Positions 5,761 through 17,875 of a stretch of 34,053 nucleotides of DNA are shown in pieces. Source of the stretch: a virus; IMG/VR virus record IMGVR_UViG_3300017605_000673, positions 1-34,053 of that record; one strand, 5' to 3'. The translations under genes were made by a program, and so were the position numbers. Below the pieces are notes generated by a model. It did no database searches and was not told where the DNA came from. It saw only the letters and a program-made list of their open reading frames with translations. Numbering within the stretch: the first letter of the stretch is position 1; every line of letters begins with the position of its first letter.

Positions 5761-7011
5761 TCAGAAGGTGCCGGGGGTGATGCCGCAGGTCACGGACACC
5801 TTGATGGGGCTCATGCCGCCCGACCCGCCCGCGTTGGTCGTGTTGAAGACGGCCTCGAAGCCGTCCTGGTAACCGACTGCGGCCTTGGACGTGTCGGACG
5901 CGGCGGAGGTGAATGCGGCAACCTGCACGTCGATCTGCACGGTGATCGCGGCGGTTCCGGCGAGGCCGTTGCTGCTGATGATCTGCACCTGCGGCTGGGT
6001 GTTGTTCAGCATGTACAGCAGCGCGCTCTCGTCCGAGACGGCGCCGAAGTTGAGCTTGCCGGTCACCGACAGGCCGCCGCGCTGGATGATGTACGGGGTC
6101 CGGACGCCCGTCGCGGTGAAGATCGGCGTGAGCTCCCGGACGAGGTCGATCTCCCCGTCGGTGACGGTGTTGACGAGGGTGCCGCCGGTGGCCGGGCCGC
6201 CGATGCCGACCACCGTCCGCCATGACGCGACGGGCAGGATCGTCGTGGGGTTCGCCGTCGGCGCCGCACCGGCGGGCACGCTCGGCCAGGACGTGCCCTG
6301 CCCGTCCCAGGTGAACAACTCCGACTCGGCGTTGAACTTGAGGTTCATCTGCGACATGCAGAAGCCGGGATACTGGCGGGCGCCCACCGTCGCGGTCGGG
6401 CCGAGGGAGTGCGTCAGGGTGTGCGACGGAGGCTGCCCGCCACCGGAGTTGAGCAGCGACCACGTGTACGTGTACGGGCCCGCCGCGACCACGGGCACCA
6501 CAGCCTGCGCGGAGGCATGCCCGTAGACCAGGCCGCCCGCCGGCGACGACAGCGGGATCGTGTACGGGCCCGCCCCGGACGGGGTGCCGGTGGTGAAGAC
6601 CTCGGCAGTCGCACCGGTGCCGATCTGCACGACTGTCGCCGCGGGGATCGACGCGACCGTCGAGATCGACGATGCCCCGGCCGCGGCGGTGGCCGCCAGG
6701 GTCGTGGACCCCGACCCGGTCGGCGTGCCGGTGACGGCCAGGTCACCGAGAATGTTGCGGAGCCACCAGCCGACGGTGTCGCCGTACACGGGCCCGCCGA
6801 GGCTGATGTCGGCGGTGCCGACGCCCTGGATTTGCGCGAACGCGTCGGTGCCCATCGACCCGCGCCAGGACTGGTCCTTCAGGAACGTCGGCTTGTCAGT
6901 CGGCGAGAACGTGGTCAGGAGTTGCGTTGCAGTCATCGCCACCGGCGTGCCCTGCGCGACCTCGGGCGCGATGCCGACGAACTGCTTGGTACTGGCAAAG
7001 GTGGCGACCAT
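5761..7011 (-). CDS. Major tail protein (tail tube subunit)
   Basis: 416 residues, beta- and small-residue-rich, located between the tail terminator and the tail chaperone as the tube subunit normally is. The N-terminus (ASTKQFVGIAPEVAQGTPV) is like many actinophage tube proteins. A Gly/Ser/Thr-rich segment at about residues 90-170 (PTGSGSTTLAATAAAG, TGTPSGAGPYTIPLSSP) looks like an added surface domain. The C-terminal part returns to a tube-like pattern (ELTPIFTATGVRTPYIIQRG, GKLNFGAVSDESALLYML). The start is taken at ATG 7011 because GGAGG lies seven bases upstream. GTG 7017 overlaps the previous stop, but the ribosome site would touch it. Confidence 0.88.
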   Translation of the reverse strand: MVATFASTKQFVGIAPEVAQGTPVAMTATQLLTTFSPTDKPTFLKDQSWRGSMGTDAFAQIQGVGTADISLGGPVYGDTVGWWLRNILGDLAVTGTPTGSGSTTLAATAAAGASSISTVASIPAATVVQIGTGATAEVFTTGTPSGAGPYTIPLSSPAGGLVYGHASAQAVVPVVAAGPYTYTWSLLNSGGGQPPSHTLTHSLGPTATVGARQYPGFCMSQMNLKFNAESELFTWDGQGTSWPSVPAGAAPTANPTTILPVASWRTVVGIGGPATGGTLVNTVTDGEIDLVRELTPIFTATGVRTPYIIQRGGLSVTGKLNFGAVSDESALLYMLNNTQPQVQIISSNGLAGTAAITVQIDVQVAAFTSAASDTSKAAVGYQDGFEAVFNTTNAGGSGGMSPIKVSVTCGITPGTF

Positions 7012-7013
7012 GG

Positions 7014-7367
7014 TCACTCCTCCGAGACGGGCGGAGCGTTGTCCGCGACCTGGTTGGGCTTGCGCTTGGTGGGCTGCCAGCGGCCGTCGTCCGGGGCGCT
7101 GAACGGCCAGTCGAAGACTGTCGCCGGGGTCGGGGGCCGGCCCGGTTCGTAGTCGGTGGCCGGCGTACCCGGGTCGGCGGGGCGGGCGGTCAGCGGCACT
7201 TCGAGGTACTGGGTGGCGATCGGGCCGGTGAACTCGTAGGCCCCGGGCGGCTGGCGGCCGGCCGGAACGGCGACCGCCCCCGGCTCGACGGGCGCGGGGG
7301 CGGTTTCGGTGGCGGGCTTGGCGGCCGGAGTCGGGTCCGGCTCGGGCGGGGCAGGCTTCGCGGGCAT
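7014..7367 (-). CDS. Conserved small protein of the head-tail region, function unknown
   Basis: 117 residues from ATG 7367, with GGAG about six bases upstream. The first 40 residues are a Pro/Ala-rich linker. The rest (TGPIATQYLEVPLTARPADP, ATVFDWPFSAPDDGRWQPT) looks folded and is rich in W, P and D. It sits between the tail terminator and tail tube genes, and its stop is followed within a few bases by the tube protein start, so the two are likely translated together. I do not recognise the family. A minor structural or assembly role at the neck or tube is inferred from position only. Confidence 0.7.
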   Translation of the reverse strand: MPAKPAPPEPDPTPAAKPATETAPAPVEPGAVAVPAGRQPPGAYEFTGPIATQYLEVPLTARPADPGTPATDYEPGRPPTPATVFDWPFSAPDDGRWQPTKRKPNQVADNAPPVSEE

Positions 7368-7410
7368 GCGGAACTCCAGTCCAGCAACAGGGTGATGGTG
7401 GGCGCGGCCG

Positions 7411-7941
7411 TCAGGCTTGGACGATCTCCAGCGCGGTGAAGCTCATGAGGAAGAAACTCTTCGTCAGCCCGGCCTTGGTCTCGGGCTGGCCGTACTCGAA
7501 GTCGATCGAGCCCTGACCGCCGTCGACCGCCTCACCGGCCTCGAAGCACGCGCCACCCAAAGTGCGGTCCTGGCGCATCCACTCCACGAGGCCGTCCTGC
7601 AGGGCGTACACGTCGTCCTGCGCGTCCTCGGCGTGCGGGGTACGGGATCGCAGATAGCAGGCCAGCTCGATGTCGTAGCGGACGTTCTTCATGCCGCCGT
7701 GAGGGCCGGCCACCGTGAACCGGGCCTCCGAGCGGCGGGGAATCCACACGACGATCTGGCAGCCCGTCCGGGCGCCCGGGTCCATACCGAGGAAGTAGTC
7801 CTGGTGGTTGTCTTCCTTGGCCCACGCCCTTCGCACGACTCCGACGCCGACGACCGGCGGCGACCGGTAGGTGCGGGTGTCCGGATCGTAGGGGCCGCCG
7901 AGGTACCGACAGACACCGTCCAGGACGGATTGGCTGCTCAT
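7411..7941 (-). CDS. Tail terminator-like protein
   Basis: 176 residues (MSSQSVLDGVCRYLGG). The length, the mixed alpha/beta pattern, the position just before the tail tube gene, and the C-terminal strand 'FFLMSFTALEIVQA' fit tail terminator proteins (gpU / HK97 gp12-like), which form the ring that stops tube growth and joins the tail to the head. ATG 7941 overlaps the connector stop by four bases (ATGA), showing translational coupling. No catalytic motif is expected or seen. The assignment rests mainly on synteny and size. Confidence 0.65.
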   Translation of the reverse strand: MSSQSVLDGVCRYLGGPYDPDTRTYRSPPVVGVGVVRRAWAKEDNHQDYFLGMDPGARTGCQIVVWIPRRSEARFTVAGPHGGMKNVRYDIELACYLRSRTPHAEDAQDDVYALQDGLVEWMRQDRTLGGACFEAGEAVDGGQGSIDFEYGQPETKAGLTKSFFLMSFTALEIVQA

Positions 7942-10862: not shown

Positions 10863-12638
10863 TCAGGGGCGGGCGCCGCCGTTGTGGATGTTCTGGAGTT
10901 CGGCGATGGCCATCTCGTTGAGCTGGTTGTGGATGGCGTTCTGCCCGGTCGCGTCAGGGCCCTGGTACAAGCTCTTCTTGAGCTCACGCGCCTTGGCCAC
11001 GTCGGCGGACGGCGCGCCGCGGTCCTGGCCGCGCAGTTGGGGCCGCGGCGGGGGGACGGCTCCGTTGGTGAACACCTTGGGCTCGGCAGGCTGCTCTTCC
11101 AGCGCCCGGATCTGACCCTTGAGGGTTTCGACGGTCTCCGCCAGTTGAGCGATGGTCTCCGCCTGTTTGGCGATGGCCCGCTCCTGTGTGGCGCTGTGCC
11201 CGTCGGGGCTCGTGGTCGCGTCCGTGTTGCTGCTCTCGGCATCCGAGGGGGTGTTGGTAGTCGGGTTGGTGGTCTTGGCGACGTCGTCGTCGGGGGCGGT
11301 GTCGGCGGGGATGCCCACCTCGGCGGAGGGCTCCGGGGTGAGGTCGACGGTCTCGGGATCGTCGGCGACGGGGGGCATCTCGTCGGGCTCGTCGTCTTCC
11401 GGCACGGCGACCGGGACGATGTTGGCGGGGTCGACGATGCCGATGAGGTTGCCCTTGCGGTCGTACATCGCGACCTGCGGCGTCTGCTCGGCCTTGGCGA
11501 CCGGCTCATCCGCGGTCACGGTCTCGGGCGGGGTGGCGGTGTCGGCCACGGTCTCCTCCTGCTTGGCGACCGTCCGGCCGCTGTCCTCGGTGGGTTCGGG
11601 GGCGGCCGGCAAAGATGCCAGCACCTTCTGGAGCTGCTCGACGGCACCACGGATGGCAGCCTCATTCCCGCTGGACAGGACACGTCCGGCCTTCGCCACG
11701 TGGGAGAGGGCTTCGATGGTGTCCAGCGGCGCGGAGTCCCAGCCGGCGAGAGCCTTGCCGACGGCGGTCATCCGATCGGTCGCACAGTCCGCCTCGGCCT
11801 GTTCGGCGACGGCGAACGGGGCGAGGACGCCGATGGCGTAGTCGATGGCGCAACAGGCGTCATCGAGGTCCATGGCCTGGTCTGCGTCGCCGGGGTCGCC
11901 GCTGACGGCTTCGAACATCTCTCTTTCGGCGAGCATGTCGACGGCGTGCTTGGCGCGGGCGAGTAGCGAGGTCCACTTGCGGGCGGTGGCCGCGTCGATG
12001 GCCTCCCATGCCGGGGAGCCGGGATCGTTCGGGTCGCCAGGGGCGTCCACTTCCGGGGCGGCCAGCGGTACGGCCGGGTCCATGCTGTCGGTGCTGTCGT
12101 CGAGTTCCATGGTCTTTGCCACCGGGCCTTCCTTCAGGGAGCCGTCGGAGTTCCAGTTGTCGGGGATCTCACTGGCGGCGCCGAGTGTCTTCGCCCGGGT
12201 GATGACGTGCCGTCGGATTGCGTCGTGGTCGGCGCCGCCGCGGCCCACGGCGCGGATGGCGTGGGTGAGGTCTTCACGGTCGGCGATCGGGTAGCTCTGA
12301 TCCGTCATTGCCTGACCGTTGGCGGCCATGCGGCGCAGGTCGTCGGTGTCGTATTTGGCTTTGGCAACCGGGCGGGCTACGGCCGCCGAGTGGATCATCC
12401 GCATGACCGCGGCGGGGCTAGCGATCAGCGTCACCTGCTCCTCCCCCGATGGTGCAGGTTCGGGGACGGACTTGCCGATCAGGTCACGGATTTGGTCCGG
12501 GTTCATCAGGCCCTGCGCATCCCGCTTCATCAGCAGGAACCCCGGCGAACCGTTGGCGGCCCGGTCCACGAGGTCTACGCGAGGCACTTCAGCGTCGACC
12601 AGTTCCGTGAATTCGGTCTCCACGTCGAGGTCTGTCAT
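10863..12638 (-). CDS. Scaffold-like protein with DUF6582-like domain
   Basis: 591 residues between the XkdF-like protease and the major capsid gene, the expected place for a scaffold. The N-terminus (VPRVDLVDRAANGSPGFLLM) resembles prohead-protease-linked leaders. Residues about 95-165 (YDTDDLRRMAANGQAMTDQS, DREDLTHAIRAVGRGGADHD, IPDNWNSDGS) match what I recall of the DUF6582 domain of actinophages. A helical region follows, then a long acidic Pro/Asp/Thr-rich stretch (about 350-480), a heptad-like coiled coil (QERAIAKQAETIAQLAETVE) and a C-terminal helix next to the capsid gene. Acidic low complexity plus coiled coil plus terminal helix is typical of scaffolds. ATG 12638 overlaps the protease stop by four bases (ATGA). 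Confidence 0.72.
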   Translation of the reverse strand: MTDLDVETEFTELVDAEVPRVDLVDRAANGSPGFLLMKRDAQGLMNPDQIRDLIGKSVPEPAPSGEEQVTLIASPAAVMRMIHSAAVARPVAKAKYDTDDLRRMAANGQAMTDQSYPIADREDLTHAIRAVGRGGADHDAIRRHVITRAKTLGAASEIPDNWNSDGSLKEGPVAKTMELDDSTDSMDPAVPLAAPEVDAPGDPNDPGSPAWEAIDAATARKWTSLLARAKHAVDMLAEREMFEAVSGDPGDADQAMDLDDACCAIDYAIGVLAPFAVAEQAEADCATDRMTAVGKALAGWDSAPLDTIEALSHVAKAGRVLSSGNEAAIRGAVEQLQKVLASLPAAPEPTEDSGRTVAKQEETVADTATPPETVTADEPVAKAEQTPQVAMYDRKGNLIGIVDPANIVPVAVPEDDEPDEMPPVADDPETVDLTPEPSAEVGIPADTAPDDDVAKTTNPTTNTPSDAESSNTDATTSPDGHSATQERAIAKQAETIAQLAETVETLKGQIRALEEQPAEPKVFTNGAVPPPRPQLRGQDRGAPSADVAKARELKKSLYQGPDATGQNAIHNQLNEMAIAELQNIHNGGARP

Positions 12639-13018
12639 GACTCACTCCTCGGTCGGATACGTCTGGCGACGCCCTGCGGGCTGAATCCGGTGACCTTGCC
12701 GGACTTGACGAGTCGCCATGCGGTCTCGTCGCAGATTCCGCCGATGAGCCAGTCGCCGGCCTTGATGACGGTGCCGTTTCCCTGGTCCCAGTCCGGTCCC
12801 CGATAGATGTACGACTCGGTGACCGTCATATGGCCGAGAGTGTCGTCGGCGTGGAACAGTCCAACCTGTGCGCCTCCGGGCAGGAAACTCCAACACGCCT
12901 TCTCTAGTTCATCGGCTGTGAAGAAGTCCCGGCCGCCGTCCGCGCCCTTCGCAATGCGCGGGTCTCTGCCCGCCTGGTACGCGAGGCCGAGGACAAACCT
13001 CTTAGGAGCGTCGGGCAT
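12635..13018 (-). CDS. XkdF-like putative capsid maturation serine protease
   Basis: 127 residues from ATG 13018, with AAGGAGGT upstream. The order of motifs follows the XkdF-type putative phage serine protease family: a start strand (FVLGLAYQAGRDPRIAKG), a helix with FFTADELEKACWSFL, a conserved histidine in VGLFHADDTLG, then VTESYIYRG, then GDWLIGGICDETAWRLVKSG, and the hallmark ending VTGFSPQG. It would cleave scaffold and capsid during head maturation. It is small, about the size of the protease domain alone, and is coupled to the scaffold-like gene by an ATGA overlap. Only the domain pattern supports this; the catalytic serine is not assigned with confidence. Confidence 0.75.
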   Translation of the reverse strand: MPDAPKRFVLGLAYQAGRDPRIAKGADGGRDFFTADELEKACWSFLPGGAQVGLFHADDTLGHMTVTESYIYRGPDWDQGNGTVIKAGDWLIGGICDETAWRLVKSGKVTGFSPQGVARRIRPRSES

Positions 13019-13028
13019 GCTGACCTCC

Positions 13029-16000
13029 TTATGCGGGTAGCACGGCGCAGCGGCACCGGGGATGGGCGGGCGCCTGGGCGGCTCCGCTGGGGTAGACGTC
13101 ACCGATTGGCACGGGACCCGCTTCGGCGTTTCCTATGCACACCGCACACACGTTGCTTGCGGGATCCACCATCCACCGACCCATCGTCACGCCGAGTCGC
13201 TGATACCCGTCCAGGGCCCCGGCCCCCGATCCGCGCGTCACCTCGGTGATGGCAACGCCGCCAGCGCGACCCAAGTCTCCGAGAGCTTCACGCAGAGCGG
13301 CGCCAACCGTCCCCGCGGAATCCCCGCGGGTCGTTCCGTTGACGAGAATCCTGGCAAGGTGCATGAGGGTGGTGCCGACTACCCCCTGGGCGGCCGCCTG
13401 AGCGGTGCCGGCGAGGGCGGCCAGTCCGGCTTCGGCGCCAAGGCTGGCGATGATCTCCTCTGCCGCGGTGGTGTTTCCCGGGGTCCACCCCGAAAGCGGC
13501 GGCTCACCGTCGCCGGACGCACTGTCCGCCGCGGTGAGGCCGATGAGGTAACTGTCGGCATACAGTCCGGCCAAGACCCTCGTCAGCGGATTGACCATCG
13601 GAAGGGACTGTGCGACAAGCCAGGCGAGCGCGGCTGCGATCAGGGCGTCCCGCGTCACGTCCGAGTCCTGCTGGTCCCCGTCGGGGGGCGGCTGGGTTGC
13701 CGCATAGTCGTGGGCCAGTTGCTCGGACTGCGTTGCCCCCAATATCCCCGCCAGCGCCCCGGCGATCAGGGGTGTCCAATGGGCGGCGGTGTCAAGATCA
13801 AGGTGCCACCCCGGCCACTCGTCGCCCTGTCCTTTTGGGTGGACGCCGCCGGCCTTCGCCACGCGCTGCATCTTGTCGCTGACGGATTCGCCGTCGTCGT
13901 GGCCGATCGATCCATCGGCGTGCTGCCAGCCGTTGCCGTCGTCGTAGGCGACCGGGGTACCGCATGGGCACGCTGATTCGTCGCCTTCCAGTGGCTGCCC
14001 GAGTGCGGCCAGCACCGCGTCGATCGAGTCCAGTAGCTCCTGCCGCACGGCGGGGTTCCCGGCGAGCAGCGTGGGATCCCACCAGGCGATCGCTTCGACC
14101 TGATCTCCGTCTGGGTCATCCGGGTTGGTGATTTCCCGGTCGCTGTTGACGGGCACACAGGTCTCGGCGGGCACGGTCCAGACGATGCCCTGGTAGACGC
14201 CGTCCGGACTGGTCCACGTGCCGACCTTCTCCCCCGGTGGCGGGATGCAGCCGGTCTCCTCGGCCCACTCCCGCCATGCGCCCTGAAGCGGAGTCTCGTC
14301 GCCTTCAAGGTGGCCTCCGGGGAATTCCCACATGCCTGCGGCGGGATCCTCGTCGTCCAGGGCCCGCTGCAGCATCAGGACCCGGCCGGTGTCTTCGGCG
14401 CGCACCGCGAGGCCCGCGACGCCGACCTGTCCGCTGGCCTTGCGGACGGCGAGTCGACCGGAGTCGTTGAGACGGTGCCCGCTGACCGCGTCAACAGCGC
14501 GGAACTCGAAGTTGCGCCACTTCCCGTCACGCCGGCGGGCCTGCCTGAACCGGCGGAACGCCGTCAGTTCTCGCTTGATCAGGTCCTGCTGTTCGGTGGG
14601 CCGGTCCTCCGCGCCATCATCGTCGGCGAGGTCGTATCCGACGATGCCCGTCTCGGCGGTGACGCCTGCGGTCGGCGTCGCGGCGTCCTTCGTGACCGTC
14701 GGCGGTCCGTCGGGCGACTCGGCCTGCACGTGCTCCCGCAGCTGGATCTGGTAGGCGTCCTCGGCTGCAGCGGATGCTTTCGCATCGGCGGTGCCCGATG
14801 CCGGTACGACGCCCGGCGGTGGCACGAACGGCTGGTACAGGACCGGCTGGTCGTCGGCCGGCCCGAACGTCTCCGGGTCGACCTTGCCCGCGACGCCGTC
14901 GATGGCGAGGAGCGGCACAGGGCCGAGGCGGGTTGTGGAGAAGAACCGTGGGGTGGGCCTGCGCGGGTCGCTGGGCAGCCCGAGGAGTTGCTCGCGGCCC
15001 TCATCGGGGCTCGCCATGCCCGCCTCGATGTAGATCTGCCAGGCTTGGGCGAGCGCGAGGCGGTCCTCCTTCTCCTGGCCGGTGTCGAACGCGAACTCCA
15101 GCGGCAGGCCCAGGTCGTGGCGCAGGAAGTCGGTGAGGACACCCTCGACGTGGGTGATGAGCGGCAGGTCGCCGACGCGATGTTGTACGTCGGCCTGTGT
15201 CTCCCCCGACGACCGGTTCACGGACTCGGTGAACCCCATGTCGGATGGCACGACGTGGAACGCCGCGCACGTCTTCCGCATCAGGAAGAGACTGAAGGCG
15301 TCGGAGAAGTCCTTCTCATCCGACCAGCCGATGGTCGATCCGCCCGGAATCCACTTGATCTGCGACTGGATCGACTGGTCGCCGAGCATCAGCGCATCCC
15401 AGTGGCCCTGGAACGCCTCGATCTGGTCCGGGGTCCACGACTCCGGCGCGCTGGCGAACGCCCGGGGGATGTTTCCCTCGGTGAACCGTTGCAGGAAGTA
15501 CGCCTGGAACCGCAGGTCGGTGTTGGCGTTGAGGAGGATCGACTCCAGCGGGGCGTGCCCGTAAAGGGAGTTCGACCGGGGCCGAAACGGTTCGTACACC
15601 AGGTCGTTGCGGGTCAGCCAGTTCCACGGCAGCCCGTTGGCGTACTGCACATACGCCTCGGCCGGCGGCTCGGGGCTGTTCCCCCAGTAGTCCAGCAGTG
15701 GTGCCACGGTGGTGCCGTCGACGACGCGCAGGCCTATGGTGCGGCCACCGCGGTTCCGCAGCCGGTACAGGGCGCCGGCGTCGTAGGCGAGGATGTCGTA
15801 CAGGTACTTCGCGAGCCAGTTCGCGAACGGCGTCTGGCGGTCGGGCTTCTCGATGACCCGCATGCCCTGGTCGATGGCCGCGTCTGCGTCGCCGCTGAAT
15901 CCGCGGGCGGGCACGAGGGACCAGTCGAGGGCGCGGATGGAGTCGATGCGGTGCCAGATGCACATCTGGGCCACGTCGTAGGCCTCGATCATTCCGCGGA

Positions 16001-16226
16001 GCGTGTCGAAGGCGACGCGCTCGTGACTGCGGGGCCGGGCGGAGATGTTGTGGCCGGTGACGAAGTTCTGGGTGCGGGGCGTGCGGGAGTAGCCGTCGTA
16101 GGGGCCGATGGGCTCGCCTGGGCTGAAGGGCGAGGCGGGGGTCATCTGCGCGGCGGCCTCGGCGGCCTGCATGTCTGCGGGCTTCTGGCCGCCGAAGACC
16201 TTGGCGAGGCGGTCACGAACGCCCAT
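13029..16226 (-). CDS. Portal protein fused to a Nudix hydrolase domain and a MuF-like head protein
   Basis: One uninterrupted frame of 1065 codons from ATG 16226 (AAGGAGG upstream). Residues 1 to about 450 are a portal protein ([60 protein letters not shown]), the dodecameric DNA gate. A linker runs to about 590. Residues about 595-720 are a Nudix domain with an intact box at about 637-659: G-HLEGD-E, then E-x7-RE-W-A-EE-T-G, giving the metal-binding glutamates. A C-x-C..H..H stretch follows near 740-765 ([23 protein letters not shown]). Residues about 790-1065 are MuF-like, ending CAVCIGN...HPRCRC. Portal-MuF fusions are known in actinophages; the Nudix insertion is the unusual part. The stretch upstream of 16226 in this frame is antisense-like and excluded. 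Confidence 0.92.
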
Positions 16227-16240
16227 ATGGCGGGCCTCCT

Positions 16241-17875
16241 TCAGCGGTGGTGTTGCTGCCGGTAGGCCGCGTCTCGGGCGCGCTTGCGGGCGATGGCTGG
16301 GTCTTCGGGGTCGCTTGTCCTGGTCGCTTCGGGCGTCTCGGGCGCGGGCTCCTCCGGCGGCGCGGTCCGCGGGTGTGCGATCGCTTCGGCCTTGCGTCGC
16401 GCGTACTCGATCCAGGCCTGGGCGCCGCTGCCGTCGAGGAGCATTTGGGCGAGGGCCTGGCTGGTGGCGTCGACCATGTCGTCGTGGGCGGCGTTGGGGA
16501 AGCCGGCGGCTTCGTCGATGAGTTCTTCGGGGTCGAACAGGGCGATCGCCGCCTCGGGGAGGAAGACGTTTCCGGCCTGCACGACAGGGGCGACGGCGTT
16601 TGCTCGGGCGTACTTGCTCTCGGTCGGGTTGATCGCGACGATGCCGGGGACCTTCGACTTCAGGGTGTCGATGATCGCGGTGCCGTTGGCCTTGTCCTCG
16701 ACGTATTTGGCGGTTGCCTGCGGCCAGCGTGCGGCCAGCGCCTTGAATGCAGTAAGGGTGTCGGTGAAGGTGAGGCGCTTGTGGACTTGATCGAGCAGGT
16801 AGACGTTCGCGCCGCGCCGCGCCCACACCTGGCCGACGACGTAGTCGCTGCTCTTGGTGTCCTTGAACGTCATGTCCCACGACATGATCAGTTCGTCGTA
16901 CTCGTCGACCAAGTAGGCGTCGGGGACTGTCGGGTGCTGTGACCACAGGGGCGTCCCGTAGCGGCGCCACCAGGGGCGCTGCCACACGTTGCCCGCATCG
17001 GGCGACGGCCGCCCCTGATACAGAGCGTTGAAGGTGCGCGTTCCCGCCTGGATACGGATGGCTTCCCACTCGGCAGGGGTGCGCCCCCGGGCGGAGGTAA
17101 GCCATTCGCCGGGCATCCGGCCGAGCGGATCGACCTCACCTTTGGCGGGGTCGTGGTCGGCGAGCGCAGGAATGTTGACGACCCGCCACCGGTCGCCGTC
17201 CTCCGCGGCCAGGAAGCGGCCGGCCAGGTCGTCTTCGTGCCAGCGGGTGTTGATCAGGATGACCGGGGCGCCCGGCGCGAGGCGGGTGGAGCCGACGGAC
17301 TGCCACCAGCTCCACACCCGCTCGCGATAGCGGGCGGAGGCTGCCTGTTCCTTGTCGGAGAATGGGTCGTCGATGACCAGGACATCGAGCGGGCGCCCGG
17401 TGAGGCCGCCGCCGATGCCGACGCAGACGATGCCGCCGCGGTGGCCGGCGAGCTGCCAGCGGCGCGCTGATCCGTTGTCGGGGGCGATCCGCAGTCCGAT
17501 ATCGAAGGTGCCTTCATCGCCGTCGTTGGACGCGATCCAGTTCCGGACGTCCCTGCCGAAGCCCTCGGCGAGTGGCTGGGCGTAGGAGACGATGCCGATG
17601 CGTGTCTGCGGGTTTCGGGCGAGGGCCCACAGCGAACCGGTCTTGGTGACCCTCTCGCTTTTCCCTTCCTGCGGGGGTAGCGAAACGATCAGCCGTGCGC
17701 CGGGGGTGGTGTGTGCCCACATGACGGCCTGATCGACCAGACTGAGAGCCGGGGTCTGGATGGTGCCGGGCGCGACCAGGGCGGCCAGATCGCCGGGCGT
17801 CTCCCATTCCTGGGCGGCCCCGGGGTCCGCCTGCGCGTCGAGTCCGTCTCCGGCGAGCGTGAGGAAGTCGATCAC
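16241..17875 (-). CDS. terL: Terminase large subunit
   Basis: 544 residues from GTG 17875 ([11 protein letters not shown]), with AGGTGA upstream overlapping the small terminase stop. This is the ATP-driven DNA packaging motor and genome-cutting nuclease. The N-terminal ATPase shows a Walker A-like [10 protein letters not shown] near residues 62-70, preceded by RLIVSL, and Walker [10 protein letters not shown] near 160-168, with a coupling segment INTRWHEDD. The C-terminal RNase H-like nuclease shows acidic positions in [15 protein letters not shown] (about 332), YVEDKANG (about 392) and HDDMVDA (about 464). Length and order fit the Terminase_6 type. No HNH gene is next to it. Confidence 0.95.

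What the first reader, a model, noticed from the sequence alone, without database searches (positions are those of the whole stretch)
13029..16226. Portal protein with an intact Nudix hydrolase domain between portal and MuF parts
One unbroken frame encodes a portal (about 1-450), a Nudix domain with all consensus catalytic residues (box at about 637-659), a C-x-C..H..H stretch and a MuF domain. The first and last parts are virion proteins, so the enzyme would sit at the portal vertex, about 12 copies per particle, and could enter the cell with DNA, as MuF-type proteins and some MuF toxins do. Targets such as ADP-ribose, NAD-derived signals, (p)ppGpp or nucleotide alarm signals of host defence are possible. 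Domains are seen; placement is family knowledge; target and delivery are inference.
Basis: partly seen in the sequence, partly recalled or inferred. Interest (0 to 1): 0.8.

Follow-up and report, generated by a model that had tools for sequence, protein, structure and literature searches.

The report
Swappable enzyme slot in phage portal
A virus of Streptomyces-like soil bacteria has built an intact nucleotide-cleaving enzyme into the protein ring through which its DNA passes, and related viruses have repeatedly swapped that enzyme for a different nucleotide-cleaving one at the same place, which suggests the virus particle carries enzymes against the chemical alarm signals of bacterial defence.

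Summary
One minus-strand gene (16226 to 13029, 1065 aa) encodes a portal, an intact Nudix hydrolase, a C-x-C..H..H stretch and a MuF domain, between terminase and a maturation protease. The Nudix fold is predicted with confidence; the catalytic-motif residues G, E, R, E, E, E are identical in 95 of 95 distinct relatives.

The fusion itself is a new member of a known kind.

What I add: the place after the portal is an exchangeable slot. In one portal lineage it holds Nudix, a 2H phosphodiesterase, both, or nothing. On a portal tree the 2H rows need at least ten changes, and close portals differ cleanly in the cassette. The window's own Nudix was exchanged too (88% identical to one whose portal is 73% identical; its closest portals, 83%, carry Nudix 57-61% identical).

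Exchange between two unrelated nucleotide hydrolases favours counter-defence over housekeeping. Injection and substrate are untested. The ADP-ribose-specific proline is absent; a Tyr typical of dinucleoside-polyphosphate hydrolases is invariant.

The parts
13029..16226 (-). portal-Nudix-MuF fusion gene, 1065 aa, ATG 16226, RBS AAGGAGG, stop 13031-13029
14991..15971 (-). portal domain, residues 86-412 (family conservation extends over about 1-430)
   Evidence: Pfam Phage_portal 8e-18; PHROG portal 2.8e-62; alignment of 21 portals
14427..14666 (-). conserved linker, residues 521-600 ([18 protein letters not shown] ... HRLN..GR..VRK), the upstream border of the exchangeable slot, kept whatever enzyme follows
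   Evidence: segment mapping over relatives
13992..14429 (-). Nudix hydrolase domain, residues 600-745
   Evidence: Pfam NUDIX 8.7e-16; 95-sequence alignment; AlphaFold2 and PDB matches
14247..14315 (-). Nudix box, residues 638-660, with G638 E644 R652 E653 E656 E657
   Evidence: identical in 95 of 95 distinct domains
14193..14195 (-). Tyr678, 18 residues after the Nudix box, in the substrate-side X-loop region
   Evidence: invariant 95/95; meaning of a Tyr here from PMC5389931 and PMC6856373
13899..13970 (-). possible zinc ribbon C-x-C..H..H, residues 753-776; sits after either enzyme in relatives, and inside a Nudix loop in L053
13035..13358 (-). MuF-type C-terminal domain, residues 957-1064, with CxxC and HPxCRC
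   Evidence: phrog_4728 3.4e-9 and phrog_115 2.7e-8; Pfam only 0.12
16241..17875 (-). terminase large subunit, directly upstream
   Evidence: phrog_38 3.5e-108; start read from sequence
12635..13018 (-). XkdF-like phage serine protease (Peptidase_S78_2), directly downstream; possible processor of the fusion
   Evidence: Pfam PF14550 4.6e-13; phrog_3017 head maturation protease

Best explanation
The gene makes a portal subunit that carries, C-terminal to the portal, a payload slot filled with an active Nudix hydrolase, followed by a MuF domain. About twelve copies (standard portal number, family knowledge) would sit at the portal vertex, probably on the capsid-inner side. During infection the enzyme acts in the host cell, released by proteolysis or ejected with the DNA, or still tethered, and hydrolyses a nucleotide carrying a pyrophosphate bond that the host uses as an alarm or defence signal. 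Phages of this lineage exchange the enzyme by recombination (Nudix, 2H phosphodiesterase, both, or none) to match the signals of their hosts. Shown: gene, predicted fold, invariant active site, purifying selection, virion gene context, repeated exchange in one slot. Inferred: catalysis, position inside the particle, entry into the cell, substrate, counter-defence.
For: Intact, invariant active site in 95 of 95 distinct domains; dN/dS roughly 0.1-0.45 in Nudix, as in portal. Same slot holds a 2H phosphodiesterase with invariant HxT..HxT in 10 of 10, fold matching LigT/CPDase, viral 2'-5' phosphodiesterases, poxvirus cGAMP PDE and Acb1. Portal tree of 110 rows: the 2H label needs at least 10 changes forced by well supported branches. 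Close pairs with high DNA identity on both flanks and unrelated cassettes: L107/L110 83% and 71%, L124/L104 85% and 81%, L132/L123 80% and 81%. Tandem Nudix+2H and 2H+Nudix in the same slot. The window's own Nudix is incongruent with its portal: L012 88% Nudix, 73% portal; L007 61% Nudix, 83% portal. The same Nudix subfamily is also fused to a head maturation protease (L066, Streptomyces phage Gilgamesh gp52) and placed after MuF (L064, Pseudanabaena phage Pam4), in head genes. Published proposal of the same role for such fusions: PMC9503650, PMC5512222.
Against: No proteomics, no cleavage site, no delivery evidence and no activity data. A late-expressed portal is also abundant in the producing cell, so the enzyme could act there. 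Nearest characterised relatives by sequence and fold are general MutT/RppH-type enzymes, which fits housekeeping chemistry too. Neither the conserved ADP-ribose nor the NADH motif is present, so those substrates are not favoured by sequence.
Confidence: 0.55

Rival explanations
1. The enzyme works late in the producing cell: soluble portal precursor hydrolyses damaged or signalling nucleotides (MutT, RppH or Ap4A type housecleaning) before assembly, and its presence in virions is incidental.
For: Best family matches are MutT-type below cut-off; structural neighbours include BdRppH, MutT2 and Ap4A hydrolases; Tyr678 invariant; late genes are made in bulk (family knowledge).
Against: Housecleaning does not predict repeated replacement by a 2H phosphodiesterase or absence in close relatives, nor that no small free-standing form of this subfamily turned up among the loci fetched (weak, since searches kept best hits only).
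Confidence: 0.22
2. The domain acts, delivered by the virion, on host molecules rather than signals, for example removing RNA 5' caps or triphosphates to shift host gene expression.
For: Fold neighbours include RppH and Dcp2; viral Nudix decapping enzymes are known (quoted in PMC9503650).
Against: Does not explain exchange with a 2H phosphodiesterase, unless that also acts on RNA ends; RppH NCBIfam scores are far below cut-off.
Confidence: 0.15
3. The domain is mainly structural or regulatory: Nudix and 2H folds serve as spacers or nucleotide sensors between portal and MuF, for example during packaging.
For: The domain sits in a structural protein; Nudix folds without catalysis exist (PMC5389931).
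Against: All six catalytic-motif residues invariant in 95 of 95, HxT motifs invariant in the 2H version, and the slot can be empty (L042, L122).
Confidence: 0.08

Closest known systems
Nudix (NudE-type) domains fused to Portal, MuF or head serine peptidase, 2022 survey of viral NAD-ADPr systems (PMC9503650)
   Same: Same kind of fusion, same proposed role (packaged, injected, counters nucleotide signals).
   Different: No description of exchange at one slot in one portal lineage was found there (terms for swapping searched in the main text). Its fusions are called T4 NudE-like; this domain's best PHROG is phrog_1198 while T4 NudE is phrog_1185, and the two align over 64 residues at 34%.
2H phosphoesterase domains fused to MuF or Portal; polyvalent proteins (PMC5512222)
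   Same: The alternative cassette found here is of that kind; same counter-signalling proposal.
   Different: Here both enzymes alternate in the same lineage, shown by tree and DNA flanks.
Arthrobacter phages Sonali and Mufasa8, portal and MuF-like fusion proteins
   Same: Isolated phages with the same architecture (about 39-41% identity to the query); one record is annotated as MutT/NUDIX hydrolase.
   Different: Distant branch of the portal tree; no work on the Nudix part found.
MuF polymorphic toxins and VIP2-MuF fusions (PMC12226406, PMC7302621)
   Same: Enzyme attached to a MuF head protein, variable between relatives.
   Different: The variable toxin there is C-terminal and may have an immunity protein; here the enzyme is mostly internal, between portal and MuF, and is a signal-type hydrolase.
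Anti-CBASS nuclease Acb1
   Same: 2H fold, weak Pfam match of the 2H cassette (best 4e-4).
   Different: Acb1 is a free protein (own knowledge); the likeness concerns the alternative cassette, not the window's Nudix.

Membership tests
Phage portal protein (Pfam PF04860) | profile match over the core and position next to terminase large subunit | tested here: met
   8e-18, over cut-off; terminase upstream
Nudix hydrolase | Gx5Ex7REUxEExGU box and Nudix fold | tested here: met
Nudix hydrolase | hydrolysis of a nucleoside diphosphate-X substrate | not testable with these tools
   needs an assay
ADP-ribose diphosphatase subfamily | conserved Pro 16 residues after the Nudix box | tested here: not met
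   residue 676 is Gly in 92 of 95; rule from PMC6856373
NADH diphosphatase subfamily | SQPWPFPxS after the box | tested here: not met
   absent in alignment
Dinucleoside polyphosphate hydrolases | conserved Tyr in the X-loop about 17-18 residues after the box | tested here: inconclusive
   Tyr678 invariant 95/95 at +18, but one residue does not prove the substrate
T4 NudE clade | membership in the NudE sequence family (phrog_1185) | tested here: inconclusive
   query's best Nudix PHROG is phrog_1198 (2.3e-16) with phrog_1185 second (1.2e-8); T4 NudE hits phrog_1185 at 4.7e-74
MuF (Phage_Mu_F) | profile match above cut-off | tested here: inconclusive
   Pfam 0.12, below cut-off; PHROG head morphogenesis 3e-9 and minor head protein 3e-8
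Polyvalent proteins / virion-delivered effectors | effector domain fused to a virion structural protein | tested here: met
Polyvalent proteins / virion-delivered effectors | presence in the particle and entry into the host cell | not testable with these tools
   needs mass spectrometry and a delivery assay

The most novel reading that the evidence does not exclude
The portal of these phages is an exchangeable payload dock: the site after the portal domain accepts different enzymes that destroy host nucleotide alarm signals, swapped by recombination at conserved borders, so that every particle arrives with ready-made counter-defence enzymes matched to the host; the Nudix version destroys a signal not yet known as a phage-defence messenger, perhaps of dinucleoside polyphosphate type.
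Probability: 0.3. Interest if true: 0.78.

Novelty: new variant of a known kind. Interest (0 to 1): 0.52.

Why it matters
Portal- and MuF-fused Nudix and 2H domains were predicted years ago to be injected counter-defence enzymes, without a clean evolutionary test. A slot that alternates between two unrelated nucleotide hydrolases in closely related portals gives natural matched pairs: nearly the same virion head with different enzymes. That makes substrate, delivery and defence target directly testable, and points to a place in a virion where different enzymes are tolerated.

Tried and rejected
Pseudo-enzyme or relict: rejected, active site invariant in 95 of 95. Artefactual fusion of two genes: rejected, no stop and no good internal start; about fifty relatives keep the same unbroken order, though about 22 complete ORFs carry portal and Nudix without a detected MuF, and in several of these MuF follows as a separate ORF. 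ADP-ribose or NADH specificity from motifs: not supported. Rfam intron as cause of the split Nudix in L099, L101, L130, L030 and L036: no match at gathering threshold; the inserts in L099, L101 and L130 look unrelated to each other and the second half restarts with its own ATG. Paper searches found no description of the slot exchange, but only open-licence papers are held.

Full report
1. The gene. The finding's coordinates hold a single open frame on the minus strand, 16226 to 13029, 1065 codons plus stop, with AAGGAGG before the ATG. Upstream lies the terminase large subunit (phrog_38, 3.5e-108), downstream an XkdF-like serine protease of the head maturation type (PF14550, 4.6e-13; phrog_3017). 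Portal 86-412, Nudix 604-721 and a MuF-type end 957-1064 are found by profiles; MuF is weak in Pfam (0.12) and clear in PHROGs (3.4e-9). The record is a 34 kb virus contig. Six relatives of the portal lie in genome contigs of Streptomyces, Kitasatospora and a Catenulispora MAG, so the host is probably of that kind (inference).

2. The enzyme domain. AlphaFold2 with 23 relatives gives a Nudix fold (mean pLDDT 83); hundreds of solved Nudix chains match (VIA-align best Z 15.0, M. smegmatis RenU, then BdRppH, Dcp2 and Ap4A hydrolases among others). Of 95 distinct related domains all keep G638, E644, R652, E653, E656 and E657; W671, Y678 and G680 are invariant too. dN/dS between close relatives is about 0.1-0.45, like the portal's. 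This is an enzyme under selection, not a relict. Substrate: published motifs lie in a loop about 17 residues after the box (PMC5389931). The ADP-ribose proline at +16 (PMC6856373) is Gly here in 92 of 95; the NADH motif is absent; a tyrosine, the mark of dinucleoside polyphosphate hydrolases, is invariant at +18. This is a lead, not an assignment. NCBIfam matches are MutT-like and far below cut-off. T4 NudE, which the literature takes as the type of such fusions, has another best PHROG and is only distantly similar.

3. The slot. Mapping the query's segments onto relatives showed a conserved linker (residues 521-600) after the portal, then a variable stretch, then MuF or the end of the frame. 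The stretch holds the Nudix in most. In L040, L103, L107, L112, L116, L124, L126, L132, L133 and L135 it holds instead a 2H phosphodiesterase (PF13563 in 10 of 10, best 2e-9; HxT..HxT invariant), whose predicted structure (pLDDT 91) matches CPDase and LigT, and more weakly viral 2'-5' phosphodiesterases, poxvirus cGAMP phosphodiesterase and Acb1. In L042 and L122 it is empty. L055, L058 and L060 have an extra domain (VADGHHR motif, weak DUF1015 match) before the Nudix. L106, L161, L280 and L284 have Nudix then 2H; L241 and L256 2H then Nudix; others have 2H after MuF. These counts come from searches seeded with portal, Nudix and 2H and are not frequencies.

4. Exchange. On a tree of 110 portals, built without the slot, the 2H rows are scattered among Nudix rows; well supported branches force at least ten changes of the 2H label (short search, SH-aLRT support only). 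Paired DNA comparisons show conserved flanks around unrelated cassettes: L107 against L110, 83% up to 6763/6787 and 71% from 7270/7253; L124 against L104, 85% and 81%; L132 against L123, 80% and 81%. The window itself shows the same history inside one cassette type: most of its nearest portals (80-83% identical) carry a Nudix only 57-63% identical to its own (L023, 82% in both, is the exception), while its best Nudix match, L012 at 88%, has a portal of 73%; identity along the protein changes near the domain borders.

5. Wider context. The same Nudix subfamily is also joined to a head maturation protease (L066; Streptomyces phage Gilgamesh gp52, directly before the major capsid protein) and placed after MuF (L064; Pseudanabaena phage Pam4). 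Where MuF is a separate reading frame, as in L029, L034, L035, L037-L039, L043-L045 and L048, the Nudix stays with the portal. So the domain follows head proteins in nearly all the contexts seen; L063 is one exception, a long protein without other recognised domain.

6. What it most likely does. An active-looking enzyme kept with portal or other head proteins, and interchangeable with another nucleotide phosphoester hydrolase, fits a particle-borne enzyme that destroys host nucleotide signals. This is the published proposal for both fusion types (PMC9503650; PMC5512222). The exchange is what counter-defence predicts and what housecleaning or a structural role does not. Not shown: catalysis, presence in the particle, side of the portal, release, entry, substrate, defence target. 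The main rival is action in the producing cell.

7. Known or new. Portal-MuF fusions in actinophages are known (PMC7302621; Sonali and Mufasa8 records). Portal or MuF fusions to Nudix and to 2H are known. I found no report of the two alternating in one slot of one portal lineage, within open-licence papers only. I therefore rate the gene a new member and the slot a new variant of a known kind.

Noticed in passing
L054, L149, L161, L164, L165 (two), L188, L127, L030: The portal-MuF gene of this lineage looks like an intein hot spot: in-frame inserts of about 340-410 aa, most with Hint, intein-splicing or LAGLIDADG matches (the one in L161 without a Pfam match), at several different sites, twice in one gene.
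   Followed up: partly
L099 about 6830-7370, L101 about 6860-7230, L130 about 7040-7820: The Nudix is split into two frames at the loop before DPAAG..PGGHLE by inserts that look unrelated to each other; the second half has its own Shine-Dalgarno-like stretch and ATG. No Rfam match. L053 carries the C-x-C..H..H stretch in this same loop.
   Followed up: partly
L055, L058, L060 (between linker and Nudix): An extra domain with a VADGHHR motif, weakly like DUF1015, resembling a ParB/sulfiredoxin-type domain by eye.
   Followed up: no
L053 residues 660-690, L116 residues 775-827, window 13899-13970: The CPCG..W.HADGS..HD stretch moves independently of the enzyme: after Nudix, after 2H, or inside the Nudix.
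   Followed up: no
L073:8112-8936: C-terminal extension after MuF with a weak PI3/PI4-kinase match (2e-4), possibly another effector.
   Followed up: no
L126 residues about 780-1030: A long stretch of odd composition between 2H and MuF, possibly an inserted gene read on the wrong strand.
   Followed up: no
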